From Tridacna crocea (lineage: Eukaryota > Mollusca > Bivalvia > Cardiida > Cardiidae): DNA of 64,000 nt. The notes under the pieces were generated by a model. The model ran no database searches and had not been told where the DNA came from. It saw nothing but the letters and a program-made list of their open reading frames with translations. The stretch is from contig OX031059.1 of the NCBI GenBank assembly GCA_943736015.1, positions 43,101,159 to 43,165,158 on the forward strand, read 5' to 3'. The translations under genes and the position numbers were made by a program. Shown piece after piece: positions 6,401-63,314 of this stretch; within the stretch, counting starts at the first letter, position 1; each line of letters begins with the position of its first letter.

Positions 6401-9400
6401 TTTTTCGTTAAAAAAAAAGTAGTTCCTAAATTACGGCAGGAAGTGAAAGTGAAAGTTGATATCGTCACTAGTGATGATATCAAAATTTATTACACTGGGA
6501 AATTCCAGGATTTCATTGCTAGGTATATAATAATATTTGACTACCCACCCACATTTAACCACAAAGGGTTAAAGAACTGGCTTAAAACGAACAAGAAATA
6601 TGTTTGACTAATCAGAAGTCGCAAATGATATTCATATGTTCAGAAAGTTTTAAACAAAGACTGTTTTAAAGAGAATTGTAAAGATTACAGATGAAAAGAA
6701 AAGAGGTAGAACGGTTTAATGTAAGAGTATGATAGCCAAGTCAATTTTCAAGAGATTTTTATGTTTGTTGATCTTTGCTCTATAGTTAAAATTATAAGTT
6801 CTATCAAGTACTTCTACTTTTATAAGTTCATATTGTATTGCTGCATTAATGCCTTTAGGGTGCCTTTCAAGGCTGGGGTTGCTTTTTTGACTGATGTACA
6901 TCAAGTCAGACTGTTGTTTGTATTTTTACCTACTCTACTTCAAAACTGGTATGATTAGATTTCAAAATTTATCTCATAGTGTACAAAACAGATCAGACTG
7001 TAAACCTTCTGCAATACAAAATTTGTGCACATTAGATCTATGTGGAAAAGCAATAAAAAAGCCCGAGCACCCTATGAATTAACTCTTTCAGTGCCAAATA
7101 TACAACTCCCAGTTCAGTCATCTCCCGCCAGAAGGCCTTTTACAGATACACATTTATCTACTTTTCTACATGACAACCATTACTTTAAATTTCAAACTGA
7201 TTTAGGCATTTACTCAATAAAACACTACCTGGTGCGACTCAGTCAGCTATGATCAGCCATTCAGAGAAATCTGGAGCTAAAACAGGCCTGATTTCTCCTC
7301 AAACATATTGATAAAAGCCATTTTCTCTATTGCTACTTTATATTGTGTATTACTACAATTCCCCCCAATATTGGGGGGGAGTGATGTGCCATATTAGACA
7401 GGTCAAATTTTCGAAGAATATGACACATGCAGACAACAATTTCTAACTCTGTTGATAACTGATCATACAATATGCTATAATTCAGATTTTTTTTAATCAT
7501 TGTATTTCTCTAAACAAGTTGATTATTTTTTATCCAAGATCAGACTGCTTATTCTATGCAGTCTGATCTTGATCTTGCACTGAAAGGGTTAAAGCTCTCT
7601 AGAAGTCATTCTAACAATTTTTATGGCACTATGCTTATGTTTATATTGCTTTGTGAAATACAGGTCACTGACTTATTCTAATATTGCAATCACTGTTACT
7701 ACTTCTGGATTTAACTCTTTACCAGACGACAAAATTTTAGATAGGCCCAAATTGAAAGCACGTAGACGACAAAACAGATGTAACTCAGAAATTTAAGATT
7801 GTTTCCAGCATGGTTGAAAACATAGTGGGAAAAGGAGAAAATGCTGGTTACCAGCATTTTCTCCTTTTCTCATGATGTTTTCAAAAGGCTTTCTTTATCA
7901 GGGTCGTGAAACAGGGATTGTTTGGTAATGTGTTAAAATAGGGTAAGTTTGAAGGGGAATCCTGTCCATTTATTACCTGGAGAATTATGATTGGTGGAAA
8001 AAATGAAGTTTGTGCAGCCTCTGTTTGGCAGTTTTCCACATATTTTTTTTCATGTGTAGAATCTTGACAGTGCATTATTATCCAGAGTTTATAAGTGGTT
8101 TTAATGTTGTCTGCACTAAATTTGTGACAGGAGTAATGATCTCAACTTTGTTTCTGCAATTGTTTCTGCAATAACCAATAGCCAAAAAAACTTGCTGACA
8201 TAAGACAGGAAAACACAGTGGATCTGCTTGTAACTATATCTATCAATTCAATGAAAGTCAGCAGGTATGAATAATCAAGGATGATAATAGAAACACTTGT
8301 ATGAACTTCAGTCTCATCTATTTCAGTGTTACATACCTACCTTTCTTAACCCTTTACTCCATAGATACTCATTTCTACGCATTGCTTGTAGGAGCCTTTG
8401 GAAAACATTGTGGCAAAAGGTGAAATTGCTCGTGACGAGCAATTTCACCTTTTGCCACAATGTTTTCTATACTATCAAAAGGTGTCATACACACATAAGA
8501 AACGGCTTCATCCTTGCTGATATTTAGGGTTAATTAGAGATACCATAGAAATGCTTTATATGGTAAAGGGTTAACTCACCAGAGTACGTAGAGCTCAAAT
8601 ATAAGCTCTTGATTGGCTTTTGTCTGTCATCTGTCTTTCAGGGCATTTGTCATTTACATTTAAACATTTTATTCTGTAAACTACAGGACAGATAGATTAT
8701 TTTGAGTGAGGCTTTTTAGATGAAGCACCACCTAAATTGTACAGATGGTTTTGCTTCACTTTACTGAACAAGAAGGCCTGGAGAGCTGAAAACAGAACTA
8801 TTGAATTAGTTTGGGATTGCGTGGTAAATTTTTAACAAATTTGCTCGAGTTGTTCAGGTCACCTGAACCAGTTGCCAACAAAAGACAAAGAGAGGAAGAC
8901 TAACTCTGTACCAGAGAATAAAATATTAGATTTGTCCAAACTGGAAGCATTGGCAGACAACAATTGTGTCTGAAATGACTGGAGTTGTCTGTAATAGGGT
9001 AGAAAACATTGTGGCAAAAGGATAGAATGCAGATCACCCACATTTTCTCCTTTTGCAGCAGTATTTTCAAGAGCCATGTTCTTAGGGTCTTTTGAAGTCA
9101 GGATATTGTGGTAAATATTTAAACATCTACATTGAAGGACTCATTTTAAAATGAATTCAAAGAAAATCAATTACATGACAATCAGGGGATTGCACCTTAC
9201 ACTAACATTATGTAATGTTTCATTTGTACAAAATGGAACAGGTGAGCAATCAAGGGCAGTTATGTCCATCTTTCTGTATTATCTTATTTTATTGAAATTA
9301 ATTTCTAATCACTGTTGCCTATTCCTCTACCAAATGACGAAATTATAAACTGGCTCAAGTTCAAAGTATTGGCAGACAGAAAATCAAATGTAAGTCAAGG

Positions 9401-12400
9401 TTAGAAATTGTTTTTGATAAAGTTGAAAAAGGACAAAATGCTGGTCAGGCATTTTTTCCTTTTTCAACAATTTTGCGTTGTAAAGGTTTAGCGCACTACC
9501 TAAAGCAGACAATCCTTTTTTTTTTTCTTGAAACTGACCTTCAGTAAAAAAGTTAAGTGAACAGCATTCGATTTTTCTCCCTTTGCCACAATGTTTTTAT
9601 CACTATTGATGTTTTAAACCTTAGGACAAATTGATTATTAACATTTTTGCAACAATGAGGTCAAAGTTTTCTGCTGCCAATTATTTCAAATGGTAATAAG
9701 TTGAAGATTTGAAAGTTAAGGTATTGCACTCTCATATCTTTCTACACTGATATCATACTGCTTTAAGATAAATTTTGTAAATTATAGATATTGTATGCTC
9801 ATTCTATCTCAGTTCTTGCTTTTGATATTTAAGCTTTCTTATACTTTTGCAGTTGATATTTGAGCATTTAGAAATATTTTGACAAATAGAGAAAATACTA
9901 AAATATTCTGGATTGATTGTGAGCTGTTTAAATCCCTGGCATGTTAGTGCCACTAACTTTAAGATAAAAGGAAAATTTGGTCTTCCAGTATAGATGTCAA
10001 GCATTTAAAATGCCGATTAGTTGTATGACAATGAAATGGACATGATAGGATCTGACATGAGTTGATGTTGAGATGAACGTTATTAACCCATTACCACACA
10101 ATCCCTACTTTTGACGCCCCTGAGAAAGAAGCCTTATGAAAACACTGCGGGAAAAGGAGAAAATGCTGGTAACCAGCATTTTCTCCTTTTCCCACAGTGT
10201 TTTCTACCCTTTCCAGAACAATTTTCAATTTTTCAGTCACCTTTATTTTGTCGTCTGCAAATGCTCTCAATTTGTACCAGTCCAAAATTGTCTTGTGTGG
10301 TAATGAGTTAAACAAGTCTAGGGAAAATGCTATTATGTGAGCCATTTGGAGCGCTTAATGACTAACATTTTTATGACAAGTTTAATAAAAAAAAAATTCT
10401 AAAACGCCAACAGAATCACTGAGTGTCCTCTGCAAATAGATTCATTATGGTAAAGTCCAAAATATTCTTGTTTTGTAAAGTGTTAAGTGAGATTGAGAGA
10501 TGATGCTTGTTACAAGAAAAAAATGTGCCAAATATTTATCCATACAGCTGGCCACAGAGAGGATGCAAAAAAATCTGCATGGTGTAGTAATGGGTACAAC
10601 ATTTGTTTGAATTAACTCTTTACCACACGAGAAAATTTTAGACTGGTCCAATTTGAAAGCACTTGCAGAGGACAAAATAAAGGTGACTAAAAAATAGAAA
10701 TTTGTTCTGGGATGTGTAGAAAACACTGTGGGAAAAGGAGAAAATGCTGGTTACCAGCATTTTCTCCTTTTCCCATAGTGTTTTCAAAAAGCTTCTTTCT
10801 CAGGGGTGTCAAAAGTAGGGATTGTGTGGTAATTGGTTAATGTAGAATAGAGAACATAAGCAGATGCACTAGTGCACGAGTACTGGCAATAATTAGTTAT
10901 CCTTTATTTTATATACTATTTTTGGACCTTTCAAAGTCAAGTGATTGAGGTTGCATTTTTGTATTGTCAATAATTTCATGGGTTGATAAAGTTCATGACT
11001 GTATATTATTATGTCATAAGGGTGTTAACTCTTTACCAAACTACAAAATTTTGGACTAGTTCAAATTGGAAACATTTGCAGATGACAAAATGCATGTGAT
11101 CCAAAGACTGATATTTGATTCGGGAAGGATAGAAAACAATATAGGAAAAGGATGAAATGCTGGTTACCTGCAGCATTTTCACCCTTTTCCCACACTGTTT
11201 TCAAAGGCTTTCTTTTTAGGGCCGTTAAAAGTCGGGATTGTATGATAAAGAGTTAACAGTTTACCGCTTAATTCCATCTTTTAACAACTTGAGGAAGAAG
11301 CCTTTAGAAAACACTGTGTAAAGAGGAGAAAATGCTGGTTGCCAGCATTTTCTCCTTTTCCCACAGTTTTCTAGCCTATCAAGGACAAGTTTGGTCATGT
11401 GAACCCCCTTTCAATTTGGACCATTCTAAAATTTTGTCATTTGGTAAAGACATAAAATACCACATTTTGAGAAATGCTTGATACATGCTGTCTGTACATC
11501 GTGTAAATCATCCTCCTCATCATCATAATAAAGTGCCACTATTTAAAATGAGCAATGGTTGTAATGGTATAAACTATAGATTTTGCAGGATGTTGAATAT
11601 GGCCCTTGAGACAGGGATTAGAAACATGTCAATAAGTTATGGAGAGATAATTTTTTATACCCCTGCAAAACAGATGTTTTCAGAGGTATACTGGTATCAC
11701 CTTGTCTGTCCATGTCTCCGTTAGTGTGTCTGTGTACAAAATACTAGTAATTTCCTGTTTCTGTCAAAGCGCTGGTGGGGGTATTAAGTCACATTCAGTG
11801 ACAGCTGTAGTTTTATACAGTGGTTACGGTATGTACATGTATTTATTTTTCCTGTTTTGTTTTATCCAAATAGTTGAAGCTGCTTTTTGTGGATGAGTGT
11901 GAGAAATGCAAAGATTTGATCCACGTACATTCGTTTGCACATGACTTCCACTTGCGATGTATTCAGGTATTTTATTTACACTTACTAATAAAGAATAATT
12001 AAAGCAATTAAAACAGCCCTTAGGGAGACAGCTTTTGAAACTGTTGTTTGAAAAATAGAAAGTGCTTGTTCAAATGATGGAATTGTCGTTGAATTGGTAG
12101 AAATAATTGAGCTTGAGAAAGTGAGGGGTACCAGCACTAATCCTTTTGATAAGCTGTCTTCCCTAGGGTCATTAGGATTGGCAGGTTGTGTGCTTATGTT
12201 ATTGTGTGGTAAAGGGTTAACCCTTTACTCCATAGATACTCATTTCTACGCATTGCTTGTAGGAGCCTTTGGAAAACATTGTGGCAAAAGGTGAAATTGC
12301 TCGTGACGAGCAATTTCACCTTTTGCCACAATGTTTTCTATGCTATCAAAAGGTGCCATATACACATAAGAAACAGCTTCAGCCTTGCTGTTATTTAGGG

Positions 12401-15400
12401 TCAATTAGAGATACCATAGAAATGTCTTATGGGGTAAAGGGTTAATATACTGTCATGGTCCTCGTGTAAGTTGAACGCTTTCCCAGACTATATGAAATTT
12501 TGACTTATTCAAATTGAAAATATTACAAGTAACAAATTAAAAGTCGCTTCAATGATGTTGTTTGTCTGTGGAAGGGTAGAAAACATTGTGGGAAAAGGAG
12601 TAACTGGTATTCGCCAGCATTTCTCTCCTGTGACCACAATACTGCAAAAGCCTTATCCCCTAGGGTTGGTAAAACTTGGGATTGTTTATTACAGGGTTAA
12701 AACATCCTAACATCAGGTAAAAGCAGTAAAAATTTAACTTATTACCACATAAAAAATTTTGACCAAATTGCAAGCATTTCCAGGCTACAAATGTAACATT
12801 GCTAAAATTAGGAATTCTGTCTTAACCCATTACCACATGAGAAAAATTTAGACTGGTTCAAATTGAAAGCATTTGCAGACGACAAAACAAAGGTGACTGA
12901 AAAATTGAAATTTGTTCTGGAAAGGGTAGAAAACACTGTGGGAAAAGGAGAAAATGCTGGTTACCAGCATTTTCTCCTTTTCCCACAGTGTTTTCAAAAG
13001 GCTTCTTATTCAGGGGCGTCAAAAGTAGGGATAGAGTGGTAATGAGTCAAATAGGGTAGGGAAATATTTAGGGATAAGGAGAAAATGCTGGTTACCAGCA
13101 TTTTCTCCTTTTCCCTAAATGTTTTCAAAAGTTGCCTCTTTCAGGGTAATAAAAAGTCAGGATTGTGTTGTAAAGGGTTAATTTCATTGACTTTATTACA
13201 GTCCTATATTGGTGGAGATCAAGATAGCCTAACCCCTAACTACTACCTAACAGGATTGCTGGCAGACTTCGTGAAAGTGTATCCCTACGCACCTAGTTTT
13301 TCTAGGAATTTCATGCAAAGAGGTAAAATTACATTTCACTTACATGGTTTCCTTGTGCAGTTTAGTTGTCATGTTTTGAGTGATTGGATTTGTCTTTGAA
13401 ATGATAGAAAACAATGTTAGGAATGGAGAAAATTGTGGTAAACAGTCTGGGCTTGTATTCACCAATAGTTCTTAAGAATGTTCTTTGTCTTATTTTTCCA
13501 CAGTTTTTTTAAATTTGACTGTAACACAACTTCTTATTGGATAAACCATTTGGGAGCCAATGAGCCAGCCAAGCTCCTTAAGAAATGGTTTTGATACATT
13601 TGCAAAAAGTAATGACCTTGGTCTGCCTGTGCAGTCTGCACAGGCTTTTGCTCAATTTTCTGCAAGTAGAAGGACCATTCTACCTCATAAGTAATGGATT
13701 TTGTGGATCAAAACTTATGTGATGACTTGGTTTGTATAATTCATCACAGAATGCATTGAATCTGTTTTTGTCAAAGCATGACTCAAATGATTTGATTTTA
13801 CTTTAGATGTGATCACAATACCCGAGCCCTCGTGTTCAGGAAGTGATCTGTATGACTACATGCTGAGACATGCCAAGTTACATGCTATGTCTGTTCTGAA
13901 GATGACCCTTCCTCAGGACTTTGAGCTGGTATGTCACATTATAAAATACATTGAATACTGGGTTATCTTTTCTGTACAAAATTGTTGACCATTATTTTCT
14001 CTTTTTTATTTTTCAACAGTTTTTTGACACAAAGTCTTACTTTCTCAAGGTATTTTGAATATCTGATTGTTGGACAAAGTCATGCATTTCATAAGATTGT
14101 TGGACAAAGTCATGCATCTCAAAGTTAATGAAGCCTGTCGATGAACTAAGGTCGTGGACCAGTAATAGAAAACAGCTAGTTCACCATAAAATTGTTCTTC
14201 AAAATTTGCTTTGATTAAAATGAGTATTATTGTACTACTCTAACTGAGCCACTTTTTCCTTTTTTTCCCTCTAAGGAATTATCATTTATAAATCTAAAAC
14301 CACTGTATTCTCATTACAAAAGGAGATAATAATTACCTCCCTTTTTTTAGAAACTAACTAAAGTATCAAAACATAATTTAAAGATGGACATCAAAGGAAT
14401 TTCTAGTAGGTTAAAAATGTGCAAAAGTATTATATTTGTATAAATCCATACTTATCAGCTACTGAAAAAATTTTATTCCATGCTGCACAAGAAGTGTTAC
14501 GTGTCTAGTACCTTAATAATTTCGAGAAGAAAACCCACTAAACATTTGTCACTTTATTTCATCAGGATATCCCCCTCTTGAAAAACCATCATCGAGCACT
14601 GATAAGCCATGAGAAAAGAGAGATCACTGGAACGGAATCAATTAAGTCCAGAAAAGGCATAGAGAATTACAAAATTGGGCTGGTTATACTACAAGACTCG
14701 CCAGTGGGGCAGGAGGTATCATCTAGTGACAAGTCTGCACTAAGTCTACAGTTTTATATTGTTCTGACAACCTCACAGATCAGTTTTCCAAGGCATTCTT
14801 TGGAAAAAGATCTTGGAAACTTCATGGCAAAAAGCAAGCATTCAGGTTTGTATTTTTCATCACAAAACCTCCATTGTTTTCAGTGCAATATGCCCTTTAT
14901 ATTTCTAATCTAACCATTATGAAACATCATTATGTTATATAATAGTTCTTATTTTAGAAAAGTGAGTAGACTTTGATTTATAGAAATAATATGATATGTG
15001 CATGTATGGTTTTGTATATTTTGACTTTTTCTTTCGAGAAATTATGTTTTGTTATTAAAAGAATTTGACATTCATTTGCTCATTAGATTAATTATATTAA
15101 TATGTAAAAAAACGTCCATTAAGCTTGCCAAGGCAATTTTCTAGACTACTTTATTAAGTTTTATCTGATGTGGCAACCTGTGTCAGAGTGCATGTTATCT
15201 GTCATTCAATGTAAATAATGGTTTTCTTTGCCTAAGTCAAAATACAAGTTTAGCTTTTTACCATACAATTTGGAGTTTCTATGACCCTTAGAAAGAAGCC
15301 TTTTTGAAAATCATGTTAGAAAAGGGCATGTGCTGGTTACCGTTATTTCTAGTGGCATCAGTTTTTGTTTGCTTATGCTTCCTTTTACAAAGTGAAAGTT

Positions 15401-21400: not shown

Positions 21401-24235
21401 CACTGCTAAACATTGTTCTGATGATGTTTATGTGGGAAAGTAGTCAATGACGAGGAAAGAGTTTTCATGTGAATCTCTTGTAAATGACAGTCCAGAAAAA
21501 CTTGGATAGGATAATACTAACTACTGCAAAAAAGCTTTAATAATATTGAAGATGGTGATAAACACACACACACCCAATAAAACAAGTTAATATCTTGGAG
21601 CTCTAGCAGTAGACTGCTTTTGAAAAGACAGAGGAAAAGGAAGTTATATTGCTAGCAGGAAGGATTTTGAAATCTTTATTAATACGGGGTAAGAAATTAA
21701 CTCTGCAAGTTATAAGTAAAGAAAACAATCTACTGGTGTAGCCCTGATGTTGTTATTGTCTGCATTTTACTTCAAACTTGAACAAGATAATTATACCGGT
21801 ATTAACCAAAAAAATGAGGAACTCATTTAACAGGGCAGTAAATGTCAAAATATTTGTACATAATTATGCCTTTTTCTTGTTTTGACTTAGAATTTTCACT
21901 GGAATTCAAGCACTTGCAGCCAAGCATTGGCACCTGCTTCGGGTGCTCTTGATTTTATCTTGCTATCAAATGTATAGATCTGTTTGCTGATTTATTCCAG
22001 TTTTAGGTTTTATTCTTTAGGGTTTATCTACATTTCTCCTTATTCCAGCCTGTGATTCGGCTGTCTTATGATGAGTTTTGTGAGCTACTTGATCGTGTAC
22101 ACAGAGTGCCTATACACGAGTTAGACAAACAACTTGTGCCATTTCAACACATGAGTATTGCCTGGTATCAGAATCTTGTACATGTTCTCAATGTCAAATA
22201 CCCAGAGACAGCAAGGGGCTGCTTCCAAAGTCAGAATAACAGTACAGAATATTATGTGAGTAGTATTATGCTCAGACATATTTAACCCTTCTGGCTTTGA
22301 ATGACCCTAAGGAAGAATGTTTATTGAAAACATTTGTGGAAAAGTATAAAACGCTGGTAACCAGCTTAATTCAGTAATTTGCTAAAGAATAGGTTTGTTC
22401 ACAGTGTTGGAGTGTTTTGATGTAGAAATAAGGTATGAAATGGAATTTGAGATTTTTTTGGCAGTGGAAATGGATAGTCACAGATAAATCATGGTTGCCA
22501 GATTTTATCAAAATAGCAATGTTCTGTAATGTAACCCTCTACCAAGTGCTGAAATTTTGGACTAATTATCCCCCAACCTCACACACATACACACAACGAA
22601 GTGGAGGGGGGTATGCTGGTATCACCATAGCTGTCTGTCTGTCCATGGACTCAGATTTGCTTGGCGAAATATTTTTTAACTTAGTGAACTCAAATTTACA
22701 CATAATGTTCCTATATATATTGAGTTGTACATGTGCAATTTCCATGATCCTGCTGTGATTTGTTTTAGAATTATCTCCCCTTGAACTCTTTTCAAGTCTT
22801 ACTTTTGTACTTAGCCATTCTGTGTTCTGAGACAAAGATCTGTTTTCTGACAAGGAGCTGGTCGGGGATATGATCATGTTTAGTGATAGCTCTAGTTCAA
22901 ATTGAAAGTACTGGTATTAGCAGATGACATACTGTGTGTAGCTTAATTCATTACCAAACAACAAAATTTTAGGTTTGTCCGAATCGAAAGCAGACGACAA
23001 ATAAAAGTGACTGAAAATTTGAAATTTGTTTTGTAAAGGGTAGAAAACATTGTGGGGAAAGGAGAAAATGCTGGTTACCAGCATTTTCTCCTTTTCCCCA
23101 CAATGTTTTCAAAAGGCTTCTACCTCAGGGTTATCAAAAGTCGTCATTGTGTGATAATGGGTTAAATAATGTTACTTGTTCATGAAAGTGAAGGAAACAT
23201 GGTGGTAAATGAAGATAATGCTGGTCACCAGCATTATCTCCTTTTCCCACAAGGTTTTCAAAAAAAGATAATTTTTTTTTTCATTTTCTCAGGCTTGCTT
23301 AAACTTGGGATTCTATGGTAAAAAGTTCGAGTTTTAATCTGGTTTTTAGCCTTCTCTGCAATTAAATAAAGATAGAAAAAATATTAATTTTATATTTCTG
23401 AACATCCATTCCAGGTGATTCTTAACCCAAAGGCTTTAGACTTGTTTATGTTACTCTCACTGGACACTAGTGGAGGCAAGGCTGTAAGTAACTTTAGTCA
23501 GCAAGAGTAAGGTGAAGAAACTAGACTTATTGTCCAAAAAGGATGTATTATGTTATGCCCCTAGTGGCCTATCTGCCAATCTCATAGCAAATTCTTATCA
23601 GCTCTGTATTGCCTAAACTGTTACCAGATGAAAAATTTTAGCCTTGTCCAAATTGAGAGCATTTGCAGACAACAATTTCAGTGTGGCTCTTTTCTTTGAT
23701 AGATAGAAAAAGAATGACAGACAACTCGCCCCAAAGACAACTAGCCCCAAGACAACTTGCCCCACAAAAAACTCGCCCCAAGACAACTCGTCCCAAATTT
23801 AGACGACAACTCGCCCCAAATTAAGGGACAACTCGCCCCACGTCGAAGACAAGTCGCCTCAAGTTTATAAAAACTCAGACTAACTCACAGATTTCGAAGA
23901 ATTGAGCCCAATTTAAAAACAAAGTGATCGATTGATTGATGAATTGATGGGCAGATTGATTGATTGATTGATGACAAAATGAATGTGCCTCAAAAACTGA
24001 AACTTTATTTGGAAAGGTTAGGAAACCTATTAGGAAAAGGAGAACAGCGTGATATTATTCAATGTTGTTATTAAATTTGAACGTCTTGGAAATTCTACAG
24101 ACCGGGTTGAAATTTGAGTAAATTTATCAAAACCATTATTAGTTCCTTCTAACTGATGTACGATTAAAAAAAAAAAACAATCTCTGCAATTAACTTATTA
24201 CTGATAGAAAGGCACTCCCCTTTTTCCTCTCTCTG

Positions 24236-24278
<43 letters not shown>

Positions 24279-27200
24279 TTATGAACTCGAACAATGTTTG
24301 GCAAAAAATTTTTTTTTGCCCCCTTATTTATTTATCTATTTTTTTTTTCATTTACATTTACGTCTTGATTTCTGTAAAAGTAACAGAGTGAATGAACGTA
24401 TTATATTGCATTGTCAATACATGTATGTATTTCCTAGAATATTCTCAGAGGCCTCTCTTTCAGTGTTGTTACAAAATGGGATTGTATGGTAAAGGGTTAA
24501 AATGACCGGTTTCGGCCTGTATCATGTTGCAATTTTGGTCGGCGATTTCTCAATTTCTACAATAAAACTTTTCATGTTTACATGTTTATGCTTTTCCTTC
24601 TTTAACCCATTCCCAAACGACAAACTTTTGGACTAGACCAAATTGAAAGCATTTGCAGACAACAATTCAACTCTTGCTGAAAAGATGATTTCTGTCAATG
24701 ATAGGGTAGAAAACATGGTGGGAAAAGGAGAAAATGCTGGTTACCAGCATTTTCTCCTTTTCGCACAATGTTTTCTAAAGGCTACTATTCAAGACGCGTA
24801 AAAAGCAGGGATTGTTTGGGAAAGGGTCAATCGGTCAGTTAAGAAGTGATAAATTGAAGCGTATTACGGTCTGTAATGTACGTCTGCCGAAAGGTACTAA
24901 GTCACGCTTGGTATGAAAACATGATTACGAATTTGACACCTGATTCAACGACAATAATCTTCATTAAAGGATTAACGTAACAAGCGTGGGTGCATCAAAG
25001 TAATTTCTTAATTGTATCACACTTTGGTAGAAGCAACTTTTTGGAATTATCTAATTCACCCTTTACCTATAATAATAAAATTTTAGACTTGACCAAATTG
25101 AAGCACTTGCAGACGACACATTCCACATTATCAAAAAAATTGAAATTTTGCCGTTTCAACTTTTTTAATTGAAAACTGGTCCTTATTGGACTGTAAAGAT
25201 CAAAGATCAGACTGTGCTTTCTGTGTAGTCTGATTTTGGTATACATTGTCTGTAAACAGTCAGTGGGTCGCGCTTAGTGCTCAGCGTTATTTTGGTAAAC
25301 TCACACATTACCCACATTATCACAAATTCGCACATTACCCCGATCCAATTAATAAAGCAAACTTTTCCGGGTCTTATGTGTATGTAGAAAATAATGCTTG
25401 ATTAATATGGTGTCGCTCGATTGTACCAGAAATGATATGTTGTGCAATTAAGTGATTGCTTGAAAAACATCGTTTATTAATTGACTCATTGCCTCTTGAA
25501 TTGAATTGAATTGAATTGAGAGAGGAATGATTCATGCCATAATGACTATCATCAATCCTCGGAAAGAAATTGACCGAGCCAAGGATCGAAACAGAAACCC
25601 CTTGTCCTCAAGTCCTTTACTACCGAATGAGCTACCGGAGCACTGCACAGTACTGTACTTAGATAGCAGTGTGCCACGAAAAAAGGAACCAGGGAAAAAC
25701 TTAAGTGAACGGCTTCGGGCTTGATGCCCCCTACTATATAGATTGTTTAACCATTTACAAAGCAAACCCTGTTTTTTATGACCCCAAGGAAGAAGCCTTC
25801 TGAAAACACTGTGGGAAAAGGAGAAAAAACTGGTTATCAGCATTTTCTCCTATTCGCACAATGTTTTCAACTCTTCCAAAGTCAAATCTCCGTCACGTTT
25901 ATTTTGTCATTTTCAAATGCTTTCAATTTAGACCAGACTAAGATTTTGGTAAAGAGTTAAATAATTTGTACATTTATCAGTTCATACTCATAAAAATTTT
26001 ATTTTAATCATCTGTATATATATAAACAATTTATTAAAAATATATATATTTGTTGATTTATAATAATCATAAGTTTTACACCTTTATCTTTTGTCTTAAA
26101 TGTACATACTGGAAAAAGTAACAAAAGCTGGGCGAGTTGTCTTCTATGTGGGGCGAGTTGTCTTGGATGTGGGGCGAGTTGTCCCCTAATTTGGGGCGAG
26201 TTGTCTTCTGAAGGTGGGGCGAGTTGCCTTGGGGCGAGTTGTCTTTGGGGCAAGTTGTCCTGCACCCATAGAAAAACATTGTTTGAAAAGGAGAAAGTGG
26301 TAGTTATCAGCATTTTCTACTTTTACCACAGTGTTTTCAAATGCTCCTACAATAGAGTTGATAAAAATCTGCAATGTGCATTAACCCCTTACCGCACAAT
26401 CCCTATTTTTCATGACCCTGAAGAAGCCTTTGGGAAATATTGTGGGAAATGGAGAAAATGCTGGTAACTAACATTTTCTCCTTTTCCCAGAATGTTTTCT
26501 ACTCTTCACAAAAGAAATTTCAGATTTTCAGTTACTTCTATTACTCGTCTGCAAATGCTTTCGATTTAGACAAGCCAAAAATTTTGTCGTTTGGTAATGA
26601 GTTAAAGGATTAAACCACTCGTCAGATTCTGGACATATTTCATACATGTGTGCACATTGATAAAGTAACAAACAGACTGAAGGTGCTCCATATTTTTTTG
26701 TTTTGCACAAAAAAGTGGACTTGCCCATATTAAAAATATTTGTTTAACCTATTACCACACAGCAAAATTTAAGACCTATCCAAATTGAATGCATTTGCAG
26801 ACGACAATTTTAAAGTGGTTCTGATGGTACAATTTTGCTTTGATAGGGTAGAAAACTTTTGGGGAAAAGGAGAAAATGCTGGTGACCTGCATTTTCTCCT
26901 TGCCCATATTAAAAATATTTGTTTAACCTGTTACCACACAGCAAAATTTTAGACCTATCCAAATTGAATGCATTTGCAGACGACAAATTTAAAGTGGTTC
27001 CGACGGTACAATTTTGCTTTGATAGGGTCGAAAACTGTGGGTGGTAAAGGAGAAAATGCTGGTAACCAGCATTTTCTCCTTTTCCCACAATGTTTTCAAA
27101 TGTTTTCTTTCTCAGGGTTGTTAAAAATAGGAATTGTGTGATAATGGGTTAAAACACAACAAATGTTGATTAAATAGTTGTTTACACCCCAAGAATACTC

Positions 27201-28162: not shown

Positions 28163-28391
28163 TTAACCCTTTACCCCATAAGGCATTTCTAAGGTATCTC
28201 TAATTGACCCTTAATAACAGCAAGGATGAAACCGTTCCTTATGTGCATATGACACCTTTTGATAGCATAGAAAACATTGTGACAAAAGGTGAAATTGCTC
28301 GTCACGAGCAATTTCACCTTTTGCCAAAATGTTTTCCAAAGGCTCCTACAAGCAATGCGTAGAAATGAGTATCTATGGAGTAAAGGGTTAA
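28163..28391 (-). mobile_element. TPC element set B, reverse, complete
   Basis: TTAACCCTTTACCCCATAAG start; core TGCTCGTCACGAGCA; end ATGGAGTAAAGGGTTAA. Confidence 0.88.
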
Positions 28392-30476: not shown

Positions 30477-32910
30477 ACACGGGTAGGAAACTTCATATTC
30501 AGAGTCAATGGCTCCGACGAGAAAATGTTGTGTTGGTCTTCCGTTTCTGAAGATGTCGGCTGAAAAACAATCCCAAAACAGGTAGGCATGTCAATATTTG
30601 TAATTATGTGTTCTTATGTCTCTGAAATTCAAAAAAAGGAGAATGTCATTCGATGCTCTAGTCTTTCAACGTGTTTTCTGCACTATGGAAAGTTGGAATT
30701 GGTGTACGATGTTGTATGAATCATTTGTGGCGTGGATTGACCGTAGCCAAAATAATACATCTCGGAGATAAATTCAGTTTGTTATTACCATTTAATTGGC
30801 AAGTAAGAGGGAGTCTTACTGTCCCAAAGCCATGAACTAATGTCCTGAAATGTTACATTCACTACTGGTCAAAAATTGAAAAGAAAAGCACAAGAATTGA
30901 TAAAAATAAAGAAGGGCTCTGATTATGTGGAGCGGCTCTGACTATGTTACTCGGCACTGATTCAAGAGGGCTCCCTTTCAAAATTTTAGTTTTCTGTAAA
31001 TAATTAGTCAGGACGTAAATTTTGGTTTTCCATTAATATCTTTCTGTCCAAAATTTAGTTCATTTGTTGGATGGAACATGATTGCATGTATGAAAATACT
31101 AAGGACTGGTGTTTCCACGTTAGAAAAATGCTGTTTAACATTAGTCTATCTAAATTTTGAAAATACTTCTGCATAGCTTTTGATTAGACCGAATGGTCCA
31201 TATATAAAATTTTTCGTGCTTTTGTCGCAAATGCAGCCCACACATAAGCACAAATAATGAAAATATATTTTCTTTTAGAAGTACGAGAATGATAAACACA
31301 GCACGTGTTTGAATGGTCTAGATGCATGAATTTGCATTAGGAAGTTTATGAATCATTATTCAGCCATCAACATAATTCTTTACATATAATTGAAACTTTG
31401 GAAACAAAATCATTGTTTTGCGAAACAATTTAAAAAGGTCACCTGTAAAAGTCATGTCGAAATCTGTCACCACCCCTACTATCATCCCCACATCAATGAT
31501 TTTGATGAATCAGAATTCTGCAAATAAACTTTGGATAGATTACCCAACAACAGTTTCTTGCAGAAGAGCACAAGCACGAAAGTGACTAAAATCATGAGTC
31601 CAACGAGAGAACCACATGCAGGTGCCAACAATATGATGTTGTTTTTCGACGGATTAAAAATTTTCAAAACGATTTTTGAAAAGGGTCACCCTAGACATAT
31701 CTGTGAAATTATTTCAAAGTCTGACCAGCCATTCCAGAGAAGATTTTGTTTAAATTTCTTCATGTACATACAGTGTTAATAGCCCACAGCCATCAGAGCC
31801 ATGTTTCTTGATGGATCGAAATTTCTCCAGCACTTTGCGAAAAGGGTCAACCAAGGAACATTTCTGTGAAAGTATTTCAAAATTTGACATGCCGTTCCAG
31901 AGAAGAATTTTTTAATAATTTCTTCATGGCCGTAAGTGGCCACCTGCACCCCAATCAGGGCCATGTTTCTAGACAGATCAATTTTCGTGAACACTGTTTG
32001 AAAAGGGTCACCAAAGGAACATCTCTCTGAAATTATTTCAAAATCTGACCAGCCGTTTCAGCGAAGAAGAATTTTCCGTATAGTGCAAGTAGCCCCCATT
32101 CACCAGAGCTATATTTATTGACGGGTCAAAATTCGCGAACAATATTTGAAAAATGTCACCCAAGGAACATCTCTGTGACATGATTCCAAAATCTGACCAT
32201 CGGTTTCTGAGAAAAAGAATTTTTAAGAATTTCTTCATGGCCATAGTGCAAGTAGTCCCCATTCATCAGAGCAGTGTTTATTGACGGATCAAAATGAAGA
32301 AGATTTTTTAGATTTTTTTTTCATTTCTGTATAGTGCAAGTAGCCCCAATTCATTGGCATTCAACAGAGCCAGGTCTTTTGACATCAAAATTTCGCGAAC
32401 AATTTTGGAAAAGGGTAACCCAAGAAACATTTCTGTGAAATTATTTTAAATCTGACCAGCGGTTTCAAGAAGAATTTTCAAGAATTTCTTCATTTCCGTT
32501 CAGTGCAAGTAGCCCTCATTCACCAGAGCCATGTTTCTTACGGGGTTACAATTTCGCCTACAATTTTTTAAAAAAAGGGTCACCCAAGGAACATCTTTGT
32601 GAAATGATTTCAAAATATGACGAGCAGTTTCAGAGGTGAAGATTTTGAAAGAATTTCCTGGCAACTAGGGTTTTTGATGGAATCAAATTCTGTGAGCAAT
32701 TTTCAAAGAGGACCTCCCAAGAAACATTCAAGCCAAGTTTGGTCCGAATCAGCCCAGTGGTTTAAGAGGAGAAGATGTTTAAAGAAATTGTTGACGACGG
32801 ACTACAGACGACCGCACGACGGACGACGGCCACATCGTTATCCTAAAAGCTCCCTTTGAGCACGTTGTGCTCAGATGAGCTAAAACCGGAATGAATGGCA
32901 TCATTTACGT
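30477..32910. repeat. Left arm of 2.4-kb inverted duplication
   Basis: Reverse complement of 33423-35844. The outer edge (ACACGGGTAGGAAACTTC) matches the last bases of the right arm, and the inner edge ends GGCATCATTTACGT. The arm contains the inverted 5' part of the exon-like segment at 35762, a unique-looking 1.1 kb, and a tandem array (about 31660-32650). Over several hundred bases compared by eye, differences are a few per hundred. Confidence 0.85.
31660..32650. repeat. Tandem array in the left arm (mirror of 33690-34650)
   Basis: The same units in reverse, for example CCGTATAGTGCAAGTAGCCC recurring, with the CAAGGAACATCTCTGTGA block. Reading frames in it are repeat translations, not genes. 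Confidence 0.7.
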
Positions 32911-33019
32911 TTTCTGATCGTACATCATATTAACAAAATGTCAATTTGACAATATGTATAATTGGTAAAATACTTATCTTTGCTATTTCCTTATATAAAA
33001 CTCTATGAGAAAATAGGGT

Positions 33020-33369
33020 TACGAGGGATGTTCAATAAGTAATGCCCCTGACCCAAGTCCAGTTGTCTGATCTAGCTGAATTTTTGCATGTGTAATGATC
33101 GATGTCTCTTTAGCTTATGTGGCAAATTACAATTCTAGGCTAATTGTTGTTTGGGATTTACAGGTGTTTGAACTGAGTCAGGTGTTAAATTGGAGCCAGA
33201 TGAGTGTCGCGCACTTATCCAGTTTTTGTATTTGAAAGGACCCACACCACAGGAGACTTTTGATGAATTAAAAGAAACTTATGGTGATAATGCCCCATCA
33301 TATGACCTTGTAGAACGCTGGCATTGTGAATTCAAATATGGCCGGAAGTCTTTACTAGAATTTAAATGA
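33020..33369 (+). mobile_element. 5' fragment of a mariner transposon
   Basis: Lies in the spacer of the inverted duplication. It starts with a mariner-like terminal repeat, ACGAGGGATGTTCAATAAGT (33021-33040). From 33172 a frame encodes a helix-turn-helix N-terminal domain (ECRALIQFLYLKGPTPQETF, APSYDLVERWHCEFKYGRKS), then stops at 33367-33369. There is no start codon and no DDD/DDE catalytic domain, so it is dead. Recognition is by the family pattern of mariner HTH domains. Confidence 0.75.
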
Positions 33370-33422
33370 CCGTTGGGTTACAAGAACTCATTTTCTATCA
33401 GATGTCAGTCACACACATTGAC

Positions 33423-47999: not shown

Positions 48000-50900
48000 C
48001 TACAGAATATAAAACATTCATTTTCATAAAATATATATACACCCTATAATTATTCATGAATTTAACCCTTTACCACACAATAACGACTTTTGACACCCCT
48101 GAGGAAGAAGGCTTTTGAAAACATTGTGGGAAAAGGAGAAAATGCTGGTAACCAGCATTTTCTCCTTTTCAAACAAAGTTTTCTACCCTATCAAAGCCAG
48201 TTGCACCATTTGAGCCAATTTGAAATTGTCCTCTGCAAATGCTTTCAATTTGGATAGACCTAAAATTTTGCTGTGTGGTAAACTGGTAAACCAGATAAAC
48301 TGAAATCTACCCTGATCTGGTTTCAATTTTACAAGGTCTGTCAAATGACCTTTTCTGCCAATTTTGATTGACAGGTTTTATCATCCAATGAAATCACAGC
48401 ATTTAGCATCATGTAAACAAAAAAATCCGGCACAATTTCTAGTTAGCTTTTCAGGCTTGACTACCGAAATACTGCATTACTAAGGGGGGCATGCCAAACT
48501 CGCGTTAACAGAAAGGTCAATAACTGGCACTTTCATTCAAGGTTAGTATACACTCGACTTTTGCCACCCATTCTTTACAACTCTAATCTTAAAACTTGTT
48601 GAAACTACTTTTTTGCAGATTATCTTTCTTAATGAGAGAAAGTGCTATTTACCATAATTTTCTCCCTTTCTTGTGATGTTTTCAAAACCTTTTTTATTTG
48701 GGACCTAAAAGCACAAGATTGTTTTCTGAGGCTTTAACCCTTTCCCAGAAAAAATTTTAGCCTTGTCCAAAATTGAAAGAATTGGCAGACAACAAATCAA
48801 ATGTTCCTCAAAACACGGAATTTTTTCAAAGAGAACATAATGTAGGAAAAGGAGAAAATACTGGTATTTTGTCCATTTCCCACAATGCTTTAACCCTTTC
48901 CCAAACAATCCCTGTTTTTTACGGGTCTGGAATAGTAGCCTTTTGAAAACATTGTGGAAAAAGGAGAAAATGCTGGTAATCAGCATTTTCTCCTTTTTCC
49001 ACAATGTTTTCTACCCTATCATAGACAGAAAACATATTTTCAGCAAGAGTTGAATTGTCATCTACAAATGCTGTCAATTTGGTCTGGTCCAAGAGTTTGT
49101 CGTTTGGGAAAGGGTTAAAGAAAATACTGGTAACCAGCATTTTCTCCTTTTCCCACAATGTTTTCTACCATTCACAAAACAAATTTCAAATTTTCAGTCA
49201 CTTTTATTTTGTTGTCTGAAAATGCTTTCAATTTGGACCAGTCTAAAATATTGTCATTTGGTAATGGCAGGCCTCCTAGCAGGCCAAAACAAAAATAAAG
49301 GTTTTTATAAAGGCTCCAATGTATGAAAATAAAGGCCTTTTAGTGTAAAATATGAAAAAATAAAGAGTAAATAAAGGCTCTTTTCGTCGAAGTTCTCATT
49401 TCTTTATTAAACCCACAGTCATACCAAACAGCTACTGCATGGTAGTCTGATGAACACAACAGCATTCTGAAAAACTCAAGATGAAAGAAACAAAAGCAGC
49501 ATTGTTTAACTACACATAAAAGAAGGGAAAATGCAGAACAAAATCCATTACTTGCTTTAAGCTAGCACGGCAACCAGTCAGAGCAAATATAAAGGTTTTG
49601 AGTGAGAATTACAGGCTATTTTGGCGTTTTAAAGGTTTTCTGGGGAAATGTAAAGGTTTTAAAGGTTTGATCTGAAATTAAAGGTTTTTAAAGGTTTTAA
49701 AGGTTTCACTAGGAGGCCTGTAATGGGTTAAAAAGATTTCTTTCTTAGGATCAGTAAAATTCGGGGTTTTGTGGTAAAGATTTAACCACATACCTGCCAC
49801 AGTGTTATAACTTTGATAGCTTTCTCTGCTGTACTATTACTCTCACTCTCAAAGTAGGCAATATCATCCTCTGGGAATCCCAACTCAACTGCCAGCTTTT
49901 TCCAATCTGAGCCTACTTTTTCTCCAACCTGCTTTATCACAGTTTTGTTCAAGGCTATCTCTACAGGCCCTTCTGTGTCTTTCTCTGTAACATAGGTAAC
50001 CTTTAAAGTAGTAAAATACTAACAACCCTATCTCATAATATGATATACAGTAACTTGCTACCTCGTGGACACAAGATTGTCGAGGATCTAACTTACAACT
50101 TTTGATTTAAAAAAAAACAAAAATTGTTTTCATATTTACTCATGCACAGAGCCTACCAACCCTTTAATAAACGACAAAATTTTAGACTTGTCCAAATTGA
50201 AAAAAATTGCAGACGACAAAATAAATGTGAATCAAAAATTGAAATTTGTGTCCACCAAGGTAGAAAACATTGTGACAATTCCACGTCAAAAAATAACTCT
50301 GTCACAGAAATGCAAAATGCCAAAGTCCCATGTGGCCTCTGTGTTCTTGGTCCATAATGAAAACTGCTACAAAATCAAGAAAACTGCACTTGCACACCCT
50401 AATATATACATAAAATTATAAAAACACTGTGTGTAAATTTGAGTTCACTAACTGAAGAACTGTCCGATTATATTGCCGGACAAATTTGTGTCTATAGACA
50501 GACATACAGCCATAGCAATTCCATTATACCCTCCTTCATTTCCTTGTTGGAGATATAAAAAATGCTGGTAACAAAGATTTTCTCTTTTATCCATGATGTT
50601 TTCTTTCCTTTCAAGGACAAACCCCATTTTTTTGATAATCATCATCATTCTTAACTTCAAATGTGTTTGATTTTTTTCACAAGTCCATATTTTAGCTGTA
50701 TGGTAAAGACAGCAGGGTAAAAATCTCATGCACAGTTTCGTCTGCAACTGAGACCAGACTGGCTAGAATGGATTAAGTCTTGCAGCACTTAAATATAAAA
50801 CCAACCTCCTTCACGGGCTGAAAATACAATCAGTGACACTCTGAACAAGTTTTCATTTAATGGGCTTGACTGAACAGTTGGAATGTATGGATCCAAGATC

Positions 50901-53900
50901 AGAAAGCACATTCTGTGCCGTAGGATCTATGTCATACCATAAAAGCTCCTGCTTTAGCCTACAGAACTAAAAGGGTTAAAACTTATCTTACGTTCACTGT
51001 TTTTGATGTCTTCCTCTTCTTGAGTTTCTTTGATCTCCTCGTCATCCTCTACACCTGTTTTCATTTCTTCTTGTATGGTCTAGGCATGATGATTAAAGTA
51101 GAAAAAATAACTACTAGTCCATTATTTCAGCAAACTAAGATGTGTGTAAAATGGACATTTCTAATGGCAAACAAAAATATTGCATTTAACTCTTTACCAA
51201 ATGGCAAAATTTTGGGCTGTCAAATTGAAAGCATTTGCTGATGACAATCAAAGGTAGCTCAAATATTGAAATTCGTCCTTGATATGGTAAAAAACACTGT
51301 AGGAAAAGGAGAAAATGCTGACTACAAGCATTTTCTCCTTTTCCCACAATGTTTTCAAAAGCGGTCTTCTTCAAGGTTGTTAAAAGTCTGGATTGTGTGG
51401 TAAAGAGTTAAAGGCTGTAATTGGTTATAATTATAACTTAATGTAGGAGATTGAAGAGATTATTAAATGTCTTGTGCAATCTGATCATAATCGTCTAAAG
51501 ACTTTGTTGGTTAAATCAACTACATTTTTCTTGGTGCTATTTGTTCATACACTTACATTCTTTGCTTTTAAACTCACTAAATATACACCAATTAATAACA
51601 ATTTCTCCACATTGTTTTAACTTTGTCCATCTGAGAAAATAGCCAAGGCTTTGAGACTTGTGCAAAGTATTGTTAACCCTTTACCCCATAAGGCATTTCT
51701 GTGGTATCTCTAATTGACCCTAAATAACAGCAAGGATGAAGCCGTTTCTTATGTGTATATGACACCTTTTGATAGCATAGAAAACATTGTGACAAAAGGT
51801 TAAATTGCTCATCACGAGCAATTTCACCTTTTGCCACAATGTTTTCCAAAGGCTCCTACAAGCAATGCGTAGAAATGAGTATCTAAGGAGTAAAAGGTTA
51901 AAAGATTTTAAAGGACTAATAAATATACATGTATGTACTGGGCACAATGGTATGAATGGCATTTAAAAAGATGTGTTACACCAAACCAACTACTAATTAT
52001 GTGTCTTTGTAGATATATTTTCCCACATTCCTCAATTCTTTACCCAACACATAAGGCTAAGCCCTGAGACAATATTAAGAAAACACTGTTACAAGTAATT
52101 CCACTTTTTCTTGCAATGTTTTCCCTTTCATAAGTTAGTCCTTTACCAGATAATCCTTTCTTTAAATCACCCTGAGAGAGAAGCCTTTTGAAAACATTTT
52201 GAAAGGAGAAAATGTTGGTATTGAGCACTTTCCACGATGTTTTCTACCCTAGCAAAGACCAATCTATCATTTGAACCACATAATCATATGCTTCAATTTA
52301 GGCAAGTCAATGATTTTGTTGTGTGTTAAACAGTTTAAAAAAATCTCATTTCCTCATAACATTTGTCTTTGATTCTATTTATACTAGTAGCATATCTATG
52401 CATAGCTTGTCTGGTAAGACTTTCTTAATCAGCTCATCACCTTCACCTTTATAATATCCTTTCCATTCTTTTTTATCATTGCAAGATTGCACAGATTACA
52501 GCAAACATTCTATTGCAACCGGCAACGGACATAAATATCAGTTTTCATCCTATATTGATTCTTAATCCTTTCCCACATAACACCGACTTTTGATGACCTT
52601 TAGAAACAGGACTTTTGAAAACATTGTGGGAAAAGGAGAAAATTCTGGTAACCAGCATTTTTTTTTCCCTTTTCCTACTTTGCTTCTATCCTTTTTCTAC
52701 ATTTTCAACAATTTTAGCTTAAATTCTGCTTCTGCATGTGCTTTTGGATTTGAAATCTAAAATTTTGTGGTGTGGTAAAGGGTTAACTATGTTTACACAG
52801 TTGACTAGATTACAACATTGTCAAGTTTTAACAGTGATTGTTTACCCATCTGGCTGTAGAGATGTTTCCTAATTTACAAAAACCAAAAAGATTTACTTAC
52901 CGGCATCTGTTTTGCAAGTTTGGATAGCATGCCATTTAAATAAACCTTTAATTCCAAAGCTGGAGTGGTACTGTTTGTAAAGAATTGAGGACTTCTTCTA
53001 GCTAACAAACGTAGCGCTTTCCACTGGAATGTCTGATCATTGGTCGATCTACAAAGAGGATTGTAGGAAACTATTAGTTAACCCTTTCCCAAACGACAAA
53101 CTTTTGGACTAGACCAAATTGAAAGCATTTGCAGACGACAATTCAACTCTTGCTGAAAAGATTATTTCTGTCTATGATAGGGTAGAAAATATTGTGGGAA
53201 AAGGAGAAAATGCTGGTTACCAGCATTTTTTCCTTTTCCCACAATGTTTTCAAAAGGCTACTATTCCAGACCCGTAAAAACCAGGGATTGTTTGGGAAAG
53301 GGTTAAAAGTTTTTTTCTAAGTAAGTTTTCATGATACATGTACAATGAAGACTTTCGTGGCTGAATACAATTGAAACATTCAATTAATATTTAAGACAAT
53401 GGCTTTTCAAGGGTCTAAAAGTCACAGACTGTATAAGAAGAGCTGTCAACTACATTTGTGCAGACATGGATTTAAAAGATTTAAAACAATTTATTTTAAT
53501 CTGTGTATTTCAAATTTGATTTCTTGGTTTAATTTATTTGAATTACCAAGATTTCACAAAAATTTTAGCAGTGTCCAGAGTAACCTATTCCTATCCATCG
53601 CTTTTTCTGCCTTGCTGTGGACCAATTTTAAAAAAACATTGTGACACAAGGAGAAAGAGCTATTAACATACCATTTCACCTATTGTCTTCATGTTTTCAC
53701 ATGTTTTACTGTATCTAACCTTAACCACACAATCCAAAACTTCAAAAATCCTGAACCAGATGGCACTTGAAAAATTTGTGGGAAAACAATAAAATGTTGG
53801 TCTCCAGAATTTTCTACTTTTCAAATAATGTTTTCTATCCTTTCAAAGAAGATTCCACAATTTAAATTACATGTATCAGGTTTGTCCTAAGAAATAGCGT

Positions 53901-63084: not shown

Positions 63085-63314
63085 TTAACCCTTTACTCCA
63101 TAGATATTCATTTTGACGCATCAACAACAGACAGCTTTTGAAAACATTGTGGGAAAAGGAGAAATTGCTCGTAACGAGCAATTTCTCCTTTTCCCACAAT
63201 GTTTTCCACTCAATCAAATATTTGTATCCTCATTTGTCCACATTTTTGACATCATATCTTTATTCGCTGCTGAAATGGAAGAGCCTAGAATTGGCATAAT
63301 AGGTAAAGGGTTAA
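63085..63314 (+). mobile_element. TPC element set C, complete
   Basis: TTAACCCTTTACTCCATAGA start (as set B), GGTAAAGGGTTAA end, but otherwise distinct arms. The core has the outer stem of set A (GTGGGAAAAGGAG) with the inner stem of set B (AAATTGCTCGTAACGAGC). Confidence 0.88.

What the first reader, a model, noticed from the sequence alone, without database searches (positions are those of the whole stretch)
13052..13181. Mirror-symmetric base changes inside single palindromes
In this copy both stem halves carry the same departure from consensus (ATTTAGGG with CCCTAAAT instead of ATTGTGGG with CCCACAAT). The copy at 48890-49118 has a matched G-to-A change on both sides (GTGGAAAAAGG / CCTTTTTCCAC). 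The copy at 23183-23328 has matched ATAATGC / GCATTAT. Two independent mutations at mirrored sites are unlikely, so one stem half seems to be copied onto the other (hairpin-templated repair or template switching), or pairing is selected.
Basis: seen in the sequence. Interest (0 to 1): 0.75.

Follow-up and report, generated by a model that had tools for sequence, protein, structure and literature searches.

The report
Symmetric palindrome in an abundant MITE
The matched changes on both sides of this palindrome are real, but most seem to be inherited from the mobile elements that spawned the copies; these short jumping elements, which make up roughly a fifth of the sampled sequence, tend to keep a symmetric core while moving and lose it once stranded, and copying of one side onto the other in a resident copy seems to occur but is rare.

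Summary
The copies belong to a 229-bp TTAA-ended, piggyBac-type MITE with a central 67-bp palindrome; family hits cover 19% of 200 kb sampled from a 1.05-Gb genome and 30% of the window. In 68 window copies 43 stem changes are mirrored, against 14.8 with halves dealt at random. Much of this is ancestry. The mirrored change at 13052-13181 recurs as an exact palindrome at 12 other loci, on arms of no common subfamily. The commonest mirrored variants in the sample (T16C; G22C+A29T+A34T+G39C) go with arm-defined subfamilies. In 78 young copies collected by arm alone, 87 private stem changes include 1 mirrored pair (0.57 expected). Copying of one half onto the other is the best account of locus L093, whose mirrored dinucleotide change is unique in the genome, but it looks too rare in resident copies to make the pattern alone. 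Symmetry is mostly kept in mobile lineages, as in the terminal repeats, and lost in stranded copies and in arrays at three loci. I infer that rare template switching supplies double changes and that selection for a symmetric core, or repair tied to transposition, retains them. Why the core should be symmetric is not shown.

The parts
13052..13181 (+). MITE copy of the finding; lacks most of its left arm (lies directly behind the right end of the copy at 12822-13050); core and right arm present, TTAA at right end
13060..13092 (+). left stem half, GT>TA variant; three positions unpaired with the right half
13094..13126 (+). right stem half, mirrored GT>TA variant
12822..13050 (+). full-length copy with mirrored T16C; reference for the 229-bp element
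48890..49118 (-). full-length copy with mirrored G22A, not seen on both sides in 41 relatives
23164..23327 (+). diverged copy, mirrored A32T within a badly mismatched stem
53078..53306 (+). close relative of the 48890 copy (94% in the arms) with G at site 22 on both sides
24602..24830 (+). second close relative (91%), G at site 22 on both sides
8346..8574 (-). copy of the subfamily with four mirrored core changes (G22C, A29T, A34T, G39C)
12217..12445 (-). same four-change subfamily
28163..28391 (+). same four-change subfamily
51673..51901 (+). same four-change subfamily
63085..63314 (-). copy with only A34T and G39C mirrored and no one-sided stem change; arms 58% like the four-change subfamily

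Best explanation
The feature is the central 67-bp palindrome (33-bp halves, one centre base) of an extremely abundant non-autonomous TTAA transposon (piggyBac-type MITE). Shown: mirrored changes exceed chance; the commonest mirrored variants go with arm-defined subfamilies, so they were on both sides in lineages that amplified; copies stranded at a locus collect changes at about the same rate in core and arms, nearly all one-sided; at least one single copy carries a private mirrored dinucleotide change. Inferred: (1) double changes are supplied by occasional copying of one half onto the other, most simply polymerase template switching at the hairpin; (2) they are kept because lineages with a symmetric core amplify better in the long run (or because symmetry is restored in a step tied to transposition), as for the two terminal repeats. 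The core would act as a third functional inverted repeat, either as a DNA hairpin or as a two-fold binding site for the transposase or a host factor.
For: Close pairs of window copies: core diverges as fast as arms (ratio 1.02 in 10 pairs and 1.01 in 15 pairs below 12% arm divergence); ratio 0.73 at 12-16% and 0.38-0.55 beyond, so the core is constrained mainly in the lineages that copied. Young subfamilies H and Y, collected by arm: 78 copies, 87 private stem changes, 1 mirrored pair, 0.57 expected. Arm clusters of dispersed copies: three have a perfect consensus palindrome; one has four mirrored differences and one one-sided; in the largest, without the search-chosen loci, T16C is on both sides in 10, on neither in 19 and otherwise in 3 of 32 copies. 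By contrast two clusters that lie as tandem arrays (loci L022, L025 and L010; the cores share most of their changes, so probably one satellite) have 8 unpaired with 0 paired, and 6 unpaired with 1 paired, sites. Terminal repeats show source-level mirroring too: 44 of 1336 against 10 of 4481 cells in 106 copies, explained by relatives (own 864, relative's 860 matching sites in 72 copies). Copying: L093 has AA>TG mirrored; none of the 14 other fetched mirrored-A32C copies has it, and its exact 45-base core has 1 match in the genome; adjacent double changes are mirrored 7 times against 0.5 with halves dealt, non-mirrored same-type 2 (two of the 7 are copies in one locus, two involve shared variants).
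Against: One-sided variants do amplify: in Y, A18G left-only is in 18 and A29G left-only in 7 of 38 copies, so perfect pairing is not strictly needed. The source-level tally (8 mirrored sites against 3 one-sided) is small and biased: A32C and the Y core were found through mirrored variants; without them it is 5 against 1, and if the tandem arrays were counted as sources it would turn. A32C is not confined to one arm type: 3 of 19 one-sided A32C copies and one with a different change on the right also have those arms. The 12 GT>TA palindromes on different arms, and an A34T/G39C core shared by 63085-63314 with copies whose arms are only 48-54% like its own, could reflect exchange of whole cores. 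No test of mobility was possible.
Confidence: 0.5

Rival explanations
1. Neutral hairpin-templated repair or template switching acts on every resident copy and by itself makes the mirrored changes.
For: L093's mirrored AA>TG, unique in the genome; L052 has site 18 A>T on both sides where its relatives (left arm 98-99% identical) have A, or G on the left only (L052 was picked because it is mirrored); excess in 176 copies, 60 against 37.8; centre base A in 36, T in 118, C in 20, G in 2 of 176 copies, where stem T sites show T>A at 3.5%, as core inversion would give.
Against: A mutational process acts alike on stranded and mobile copies, yet the young copies collected by arm show 1 mirrored pair in 87 changes, and the excess in the 176 copies is 22 pairs beside 902 unmatched changes, part of it unmasked ancestry. 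At site 32, 0 of 28 A>T and 1 of 21 A>G copies are mirrored (first 100 of 1522 rows).
Confidence: 0.17
2. Subfamily ancestry alone: a few founders happened to carry symmetric variants and were copied many times; no copying between halves and no selection on symmetry.
For: The commonest mirrored changes go with arm type; private mirrored changes in young copies collected by arm are near chance.
Against: It does not say why founders are symmetric: four paired changes and one unpaired in the four-change subfamily, two paired in Y. L093's dinucleotide pair is private. GT>TA on both sides (12) is far above what left-only (20, of which 7 in one 70-kb stretch) and right-only (22) counts would give by chance among some 116,000 near-perfect cores (exact number of unchanged 53-mers not counted), without a common arm subfamily.
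Confidence: 0.15
3. The two halves are separate sequence-specific binding sites for the same protein (for example the transposase); mirrored changes are parallel adaptation to binding specificity, and pairing as such does not matter.
For: Core sequence itself, not only symmetry, is conserved across lineages with different arms. piggyBac and piggyBat transposases bind palindromic motifs in the element ends with paired C-terminal domains (passages of PMC7351741 and PMC11707139). The genome has 118 matches to the piggyBac transposase family, 26 of them near full length without stops.
Against: 33-bp perfect halves down to the centre base are longer than the 19-bp motif of piggyBac; mirrored variants occur along most of the half (sites 14-40 and 9). 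No transposase with matching ends among 7 loci examined.
Confidence: 0.2
4. Whole cores are exchanged between elements by gene conversion or recombination, so symmetric variants spread as units across different arms.
For: The A34T/G39C core is in 63085-63314 and in four copies whose arms are 48-54% like its own (those four are 72-90% alike among themselves); GT>TA cores in 12 copies with arms of no common subfamily.
Against: Explains spread, not origin of symmetry; one member, L052, most likely arose from an AA/TT core in its own subfamily, so some are independent.
Confidence: 0.1

Closest known systems
CMITE group of coral MITEs (Acropora; PMC2872659: abstract, part 1 of 2 of Results, and Discussion read)
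   Same: TTAA target duplications, CCCTTT-type piggyBac ends, an internal region shared by families with different flanks, tandem arrays
   Different: CMITE is about 100 bp with a 75-base internal region not described as a palindrome in the parts read, and about 1600 copies are estimated there; here the internal region is a perfect 67-bp palindrome with some 116,000 near-perfect copies
Template-switch maintenance of RNA hairpins (PMC8794818: abstract and part 1 of 2 of Results read)
   Same: multi-base compensatory changes in one step, as in L093; loop inversion expected
   Different: there in rRNA and microRNA genes under RNA selection; here in a DNA transposon, where the process looks rare in resident copies
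Homogenisation of short inverted-repeat arms by template switching in yeast (PMC8604942: abstract and Introduction read)
   Same: one arm copied onto the other, multinucleotide mutations, spacer inversion
   Different: single genes in yeast strains; here a dispersed family that lets stranded and mobile copies be compared
Palindromic internal repeats of piggyBac and piggyBat ends (PMC7351741, PMC11707139: passages read)
   Same: palindromic cis element bound by a transposase domain dimer
   Different: 19 bp or imperfect, near the ends; here 67 bp, central, and binding is untested

Membership tests
piggyBac-type MITE | TTAA at both ends | tested here: met
   consensus TTAA...TTAA; in 106 copies with both ends the first four positions read TTAA on both sides in nearly all that have letters there. 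Empty sites were not tested
piggyBac-type MITE | terminal inverted repeats starting CC[C/T]T | tested here: met
   CCCTTTACCA in part of the copies; CTCTTTACCA and CCCATTACCA types depart from the motif in one letter
piggyBac-type MITE | short, non-coding, many copies | tested here: met
   229 bp; about 116,000 matches per strand to the 67-bp core within 2 mismatches
piggyBac-type MITE | piggyBac transposases in the same genome | tested here: met
   118 matches to PF13843, 26 near full length without stops
piggyBac-type MITE | autonomous partner with the same ends | tested here: inconclusive
   of 7 transposase loci examined, one shows TTAACCCTTTATATAC on both sides, one TTAACCCTTGTCATGC / TTAACCCTAGTCATGC, one TTAACCCTTTATATAC on the left only, 4 no clear pair; none has the MITE's CCCTTTACCA as a pair flanking the gene. 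Only 7 of 118 matches were looked at
CMITE-like group | internal region more conserved than the terminal repeats | tested here: inconclusive
   window pairs: core less diverged than the outermost 10 bases at each end for arm divergence 12-40% (for example 0.137 against 0.180), more diverged above 40% (0.22-0.24 against 0.16-0.18). Not filed as CMITE
CMITE-like group | sequence of the CMITE internal region | not tested
   the CMITE sequence was not in the parts read
template-switch homogenisation of inverted repeats | multi-base mirrored change in one copy | tested here: met
   L093, unique
template-switch homogenisation of inverted repeats | inversion of the spacer | tested here: inconclusive
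   centre base A in 36 of 176 copies; could be subfamily variation
template-switch homogenisation of inverted repeats | excess of private mirrored changes in resident copies | tested here: inconclusive
   1 against 0.57 in young copies collected by arm; 60 against 37.8 in mixed copies

The most novel reading that the evidence does not exclude
The palindromic core is a functional third inverted repeat of these MITEs, needed as a hairpin or two-fold site for efficient amplification, passed as a module between families with unrelated arms, and evolving by whole-half template switching that selection then retains. A natural experiment of this size would show directly how symmetric DNA elements get past the one-sided intermediate.
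Probability: 0.25. Interest if true: 0.7.

Novelty: new variant of a known kind. Interest (0 to 1): 0.5.

Why it matters
The family offers on the order of a hundred thousand near-perfect copies of one 67-bp palindrome in one genome, with stranded copies as a neutral control and subfamily markers as a record of the mobile lineages. That separates mutation (how often one half is copied onto the other) from selection (whether symmetry is needed to move), which is hard to do for RNA stems. It also shows a MITE group covering about a fifth of the sampled sequence whose internal palindrome behaves like its terminal repeats.

Tried and rejected
RNA families: no Rfam match at gathering scores in the window. 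Arms as a mirrored control: the two arms are not inverted repeats of each other, so the terminal repeats were used. A second interior site (site 28) as a repeat of the site-32 test: not completed. Strict selection for perfect pairing: rejected, because one-sided variants amplify in subfamily Y. The 13052 copy as an independent double mutation: rejected. Sibling swap for the core (own mirrored 64, with relatives' right halves 50, left halves 58, in 89 copies) is weakened because one relative with a changed base at site 16 served many T16C copies. An argument from mutation types is weak: 6 of 8 source-level mirrored changes are transversions against 21 of 67 private changes in H (p 0.02), but p is 0.05 when Y is added. 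Papers: nine searches listed no description of this palindromic MITE or of mirrored change in MITE cores; this holds for that library, those terms and the rows shown. In a Mercenaria genome paper (PMC8905726) a word search of the main text found no MITE mention. Rows dropped: copies with fewer than 24 or 28 complete stem pairs; near-identical copies (192 to 176); 2 copies lacking arms in the tree; L132 and L136 in the Y counts (core broken by deletion or another insertion); in the Y and H private counts, variants seen on one side in 5 or more copies; 3 copies with indels in the outer-stem count; L001 (same place as the window).

Full report
WHAT IT IS. The three copies named in the finding belong to one repeat. 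A profile built from window copies finds 112 non-overlapping hits in the window. The full element is 229 bp, begins and ends with TTAA, has ends of the types TTAACCCTTTACCA, TTAACTCTTTACCA and TTAACCCATTACCA, two unlike arms, and a central palindrome of two 33-bp halves around one base: GAAAACATTGTGGGAAAAGGAGAAAATGCTGGT, T, and the mirror. One strand folds as a long hairpin (13058-13128: -27.2 kcal/mol as DNA, z -10.3). The window lies in a 1.05-Gb genome of 31 contigs. Family hits cover 19% of 20 arbitrarily placed 10-kb stretches and 30% of the window. The 67-bp core within two mismatches has 115,581 forward and 115,977 reverse matches; a symmetric core matches on both strands, so this means roughly 116,000 near-perfect palindromes. 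A frame matching THO complex subunit 1 points to a eukaryote; repeat types and the number of large contigs remind me of bivalves, but that is recall and was not tested.

DOES THE OBSERVATION HOLD. Yes; coordinates and counts are in the observation check. The naive excess is about threefold and falls as ancestry is taken out.

THE COPY OF THE FINDING. The exact 53-base palindrome with GT>TA on both sides occurs 12 times in the genome; the window copy, with further stem changes, is a 13th case. Left-only occurs 20 times (7 within 70 kb of contig C11) and right-only 22 times. The arms of the 12 are not one subfamily: mean pairwise identity 0.667, maximum 0.783 in 66 pairs, against 0.738 for 19 copies from the sample with clean cores. 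For one of them, L052, a left-arm search returned 40 scored places of 912 candidates, 98-100% identical over about 104 bases. Their consensus core is ATTAAGGG / CCCTTAAT, itself a mirrored pair of changes, and L052 alone carries a further A>T on both sides. L052 was chosen because it is mirrored, so it shows that such a change arises, not how often. Outside the searched 53 bases, three of the 12 show further matching changes by eye: L057 C>T on both sides, L060 a one-base deletion on both sides, L049 an extra T on both sides.

SUBFAMILY MARKERS. Clusters by arms of 219 window and fetched copies, search-chosen loci L002-L008 included: T16C on both sides in 22 of 50 copies of the largest cluster, on neither in 24; without the search-chosen loci 10 and 19 of 32; 22 of all 27 mirrored T16C copies lie in that cluster. 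An 11-copy cluster with quite different arms has four mirrored changes and a one-sided G21A in 6 of 11. A pattern search for any change at left site 32 (1522 matches, first 100 listed, counted by hand) gave A>C 51 (17 mirrored, 31 one-sided, 3 other), A>T 28 (0 mirrored), A>G 21 (1 mirrored). I fetched 40 of these, among them 15 of the 17 mirrored A>C copies: 13 of 15 have arms at least 87% like one consensus, against 3 of the 19 one-sided ones that could be compared, of 21 fetched. So mirrored changes are common for some variants tied to arm type and rare otherwise, but the tie is not exclusive.

PRIVATE CHANGES IN YOUNG COPIES. Two subfamilies were collected by left arm alone (40 listed places each). 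Y: 38 usable copies. H (that of the 48890 copy): 42 copies including 3 of the window. Leaving out the two copies chosen for being mirrored (L052 and the 48890 copy), 78 copies carry 87 private stem changes and 1 mirrored pair (T16C in L144), expected 0.57. With them it is 3 pairs against 0.72. Stem and arm change rates are alike: H 2.5% and 3.1% per site, Y 2.0% and 1.5% including shared one-sided variants. Over window pairs, core and arms diverge equally below 12% arm divergence, and the core falls to about half beyond 16%.

SIGNS OF COPYING. L093 has arms 96% like the A32C-type consensus (it is one of the 11 copies behind that consensus) and AA>TG on both sides; its exact 45-base core has one match in the genome, itself. 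In 176 copies, adjacent double changes are mirrored 7 times against 0.5 when halves are dealt; non-mirrored same-type cases number 2. Of the 7, two are copies in one locus (L023), one is the GT>TA variant, and one joins a subfamily marker with a neighbour. L074, with arms unlike the rest, has mirrored A15T, G20T, G22A and A32C and one unpaired change. In the outer stem of 37 copies chosen on the inner stem only, mirrored cells are 7 of 592 against 8 of 2516 non-mirrored; 3 of the 7 are L074 and 2 are L093.

TERMINAL REPEATS AS CONTROL. The ends show mirroring more strongly: 44 of 1336 against 10 of 4481 non-mirrored cells in 106 copies. Replacing the right end by that of the nearest relative leaves the match unchanged (864 and 860 sites, 72 copies), so it is source-level. 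The same swap on the core gave 64 own against 50 and 58 in 89 copies, an excess that is partly an artefact. Two clusters that lie as tandem arrays at three loci (L022, L025, L010), amplified without transposition as far as seen, have cores with many unpaired sites.

MECHANISM. A mutational process that copies one half onto the other should act on stranded and mobile copies alike. In stranded copies it is rare, but the lineages that spawned dispersed subfamilies mostly carry symmetric cores. I therefore infer a filter, or a repair step, tied to amplification, with rare template switching as the supply of double changes. The source-level set (T16C, G18A, T19A, G22C, A29T, A32C, A34T, G39C mirrored; A18G, A29G, G21A one-sided) is small; three of the mirrored sites and two of the one-sided ones come from subfamilies found through mirrored variants. 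One-sided variants do amplify (18 and 7 of 38 in Y), so any need for symmetry is not absolute.

RELATION TO KNOWN SYSTEMS. The ends and TTAA fit the piggyBac superfamily; the genome has 118 matches to its transposase, 26 near full length without stops. Of 7 transposase loci examined, three have ends starting TTAACCCTT and none continues like the MITE. Coral CMITEs share the idea of an internal region common to families with different flanks. Template switching as a maker of symmetric changes is established. Nine searches of the held library listed no account of this element or of mirrored change in MITE cores.

LIMITS.

Noticed in passing
30477-35844: A large inverted repeat with arms of about 2.6 kb in blocks 94-97% complementary, centred near 33160.
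   Followed up: no
L010, L022, L025, L023: Fetched stretches hold the MITE core inside tandem arrays; in L010, L022 and L025 six copies each, about 1.6-1.7 kb apart, with cores that are not symmetric.
   Followed up: partly
26720-27081: Direct duplication of 179 bp that repeats part of a MITE copy.
   Followed up: no
23719-23840 and 26130-26261: Minisatellites of units like GGGCGAGTTGTC on opposite strands.
   Followed up: no
45749-46125: Two copies of a 188-bp unit, 95% matching.
   Followed up: no
61652-61993: Open frame on the minus strand matching THO complex subunit 1 (efThoc1, E 2.7e-07).
   Followed up: partly
core centre, 176 copies: The centre base relative to the arms is A in 36 copies and C in 20, more variable than stem T sites; inversion of the core or free variation.
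   Followed up: partly
63085-63314, L028:5270-5498, L027:1707-1934, L016:4699-4926, L016:822-1048: The same derived symmetric core (A34T, G39C) sits in the window copy and in four copies whose arms are only 48-54% like its own, suggesting that cores may be exchanged between elements.
   Followed up: partly
L183-L188 (flanks of three piggyBac transposase genes): Transposase genes, some in groups with equal scores as if recently multiplied, have copies of this MITE beside them.
   Followed up: no
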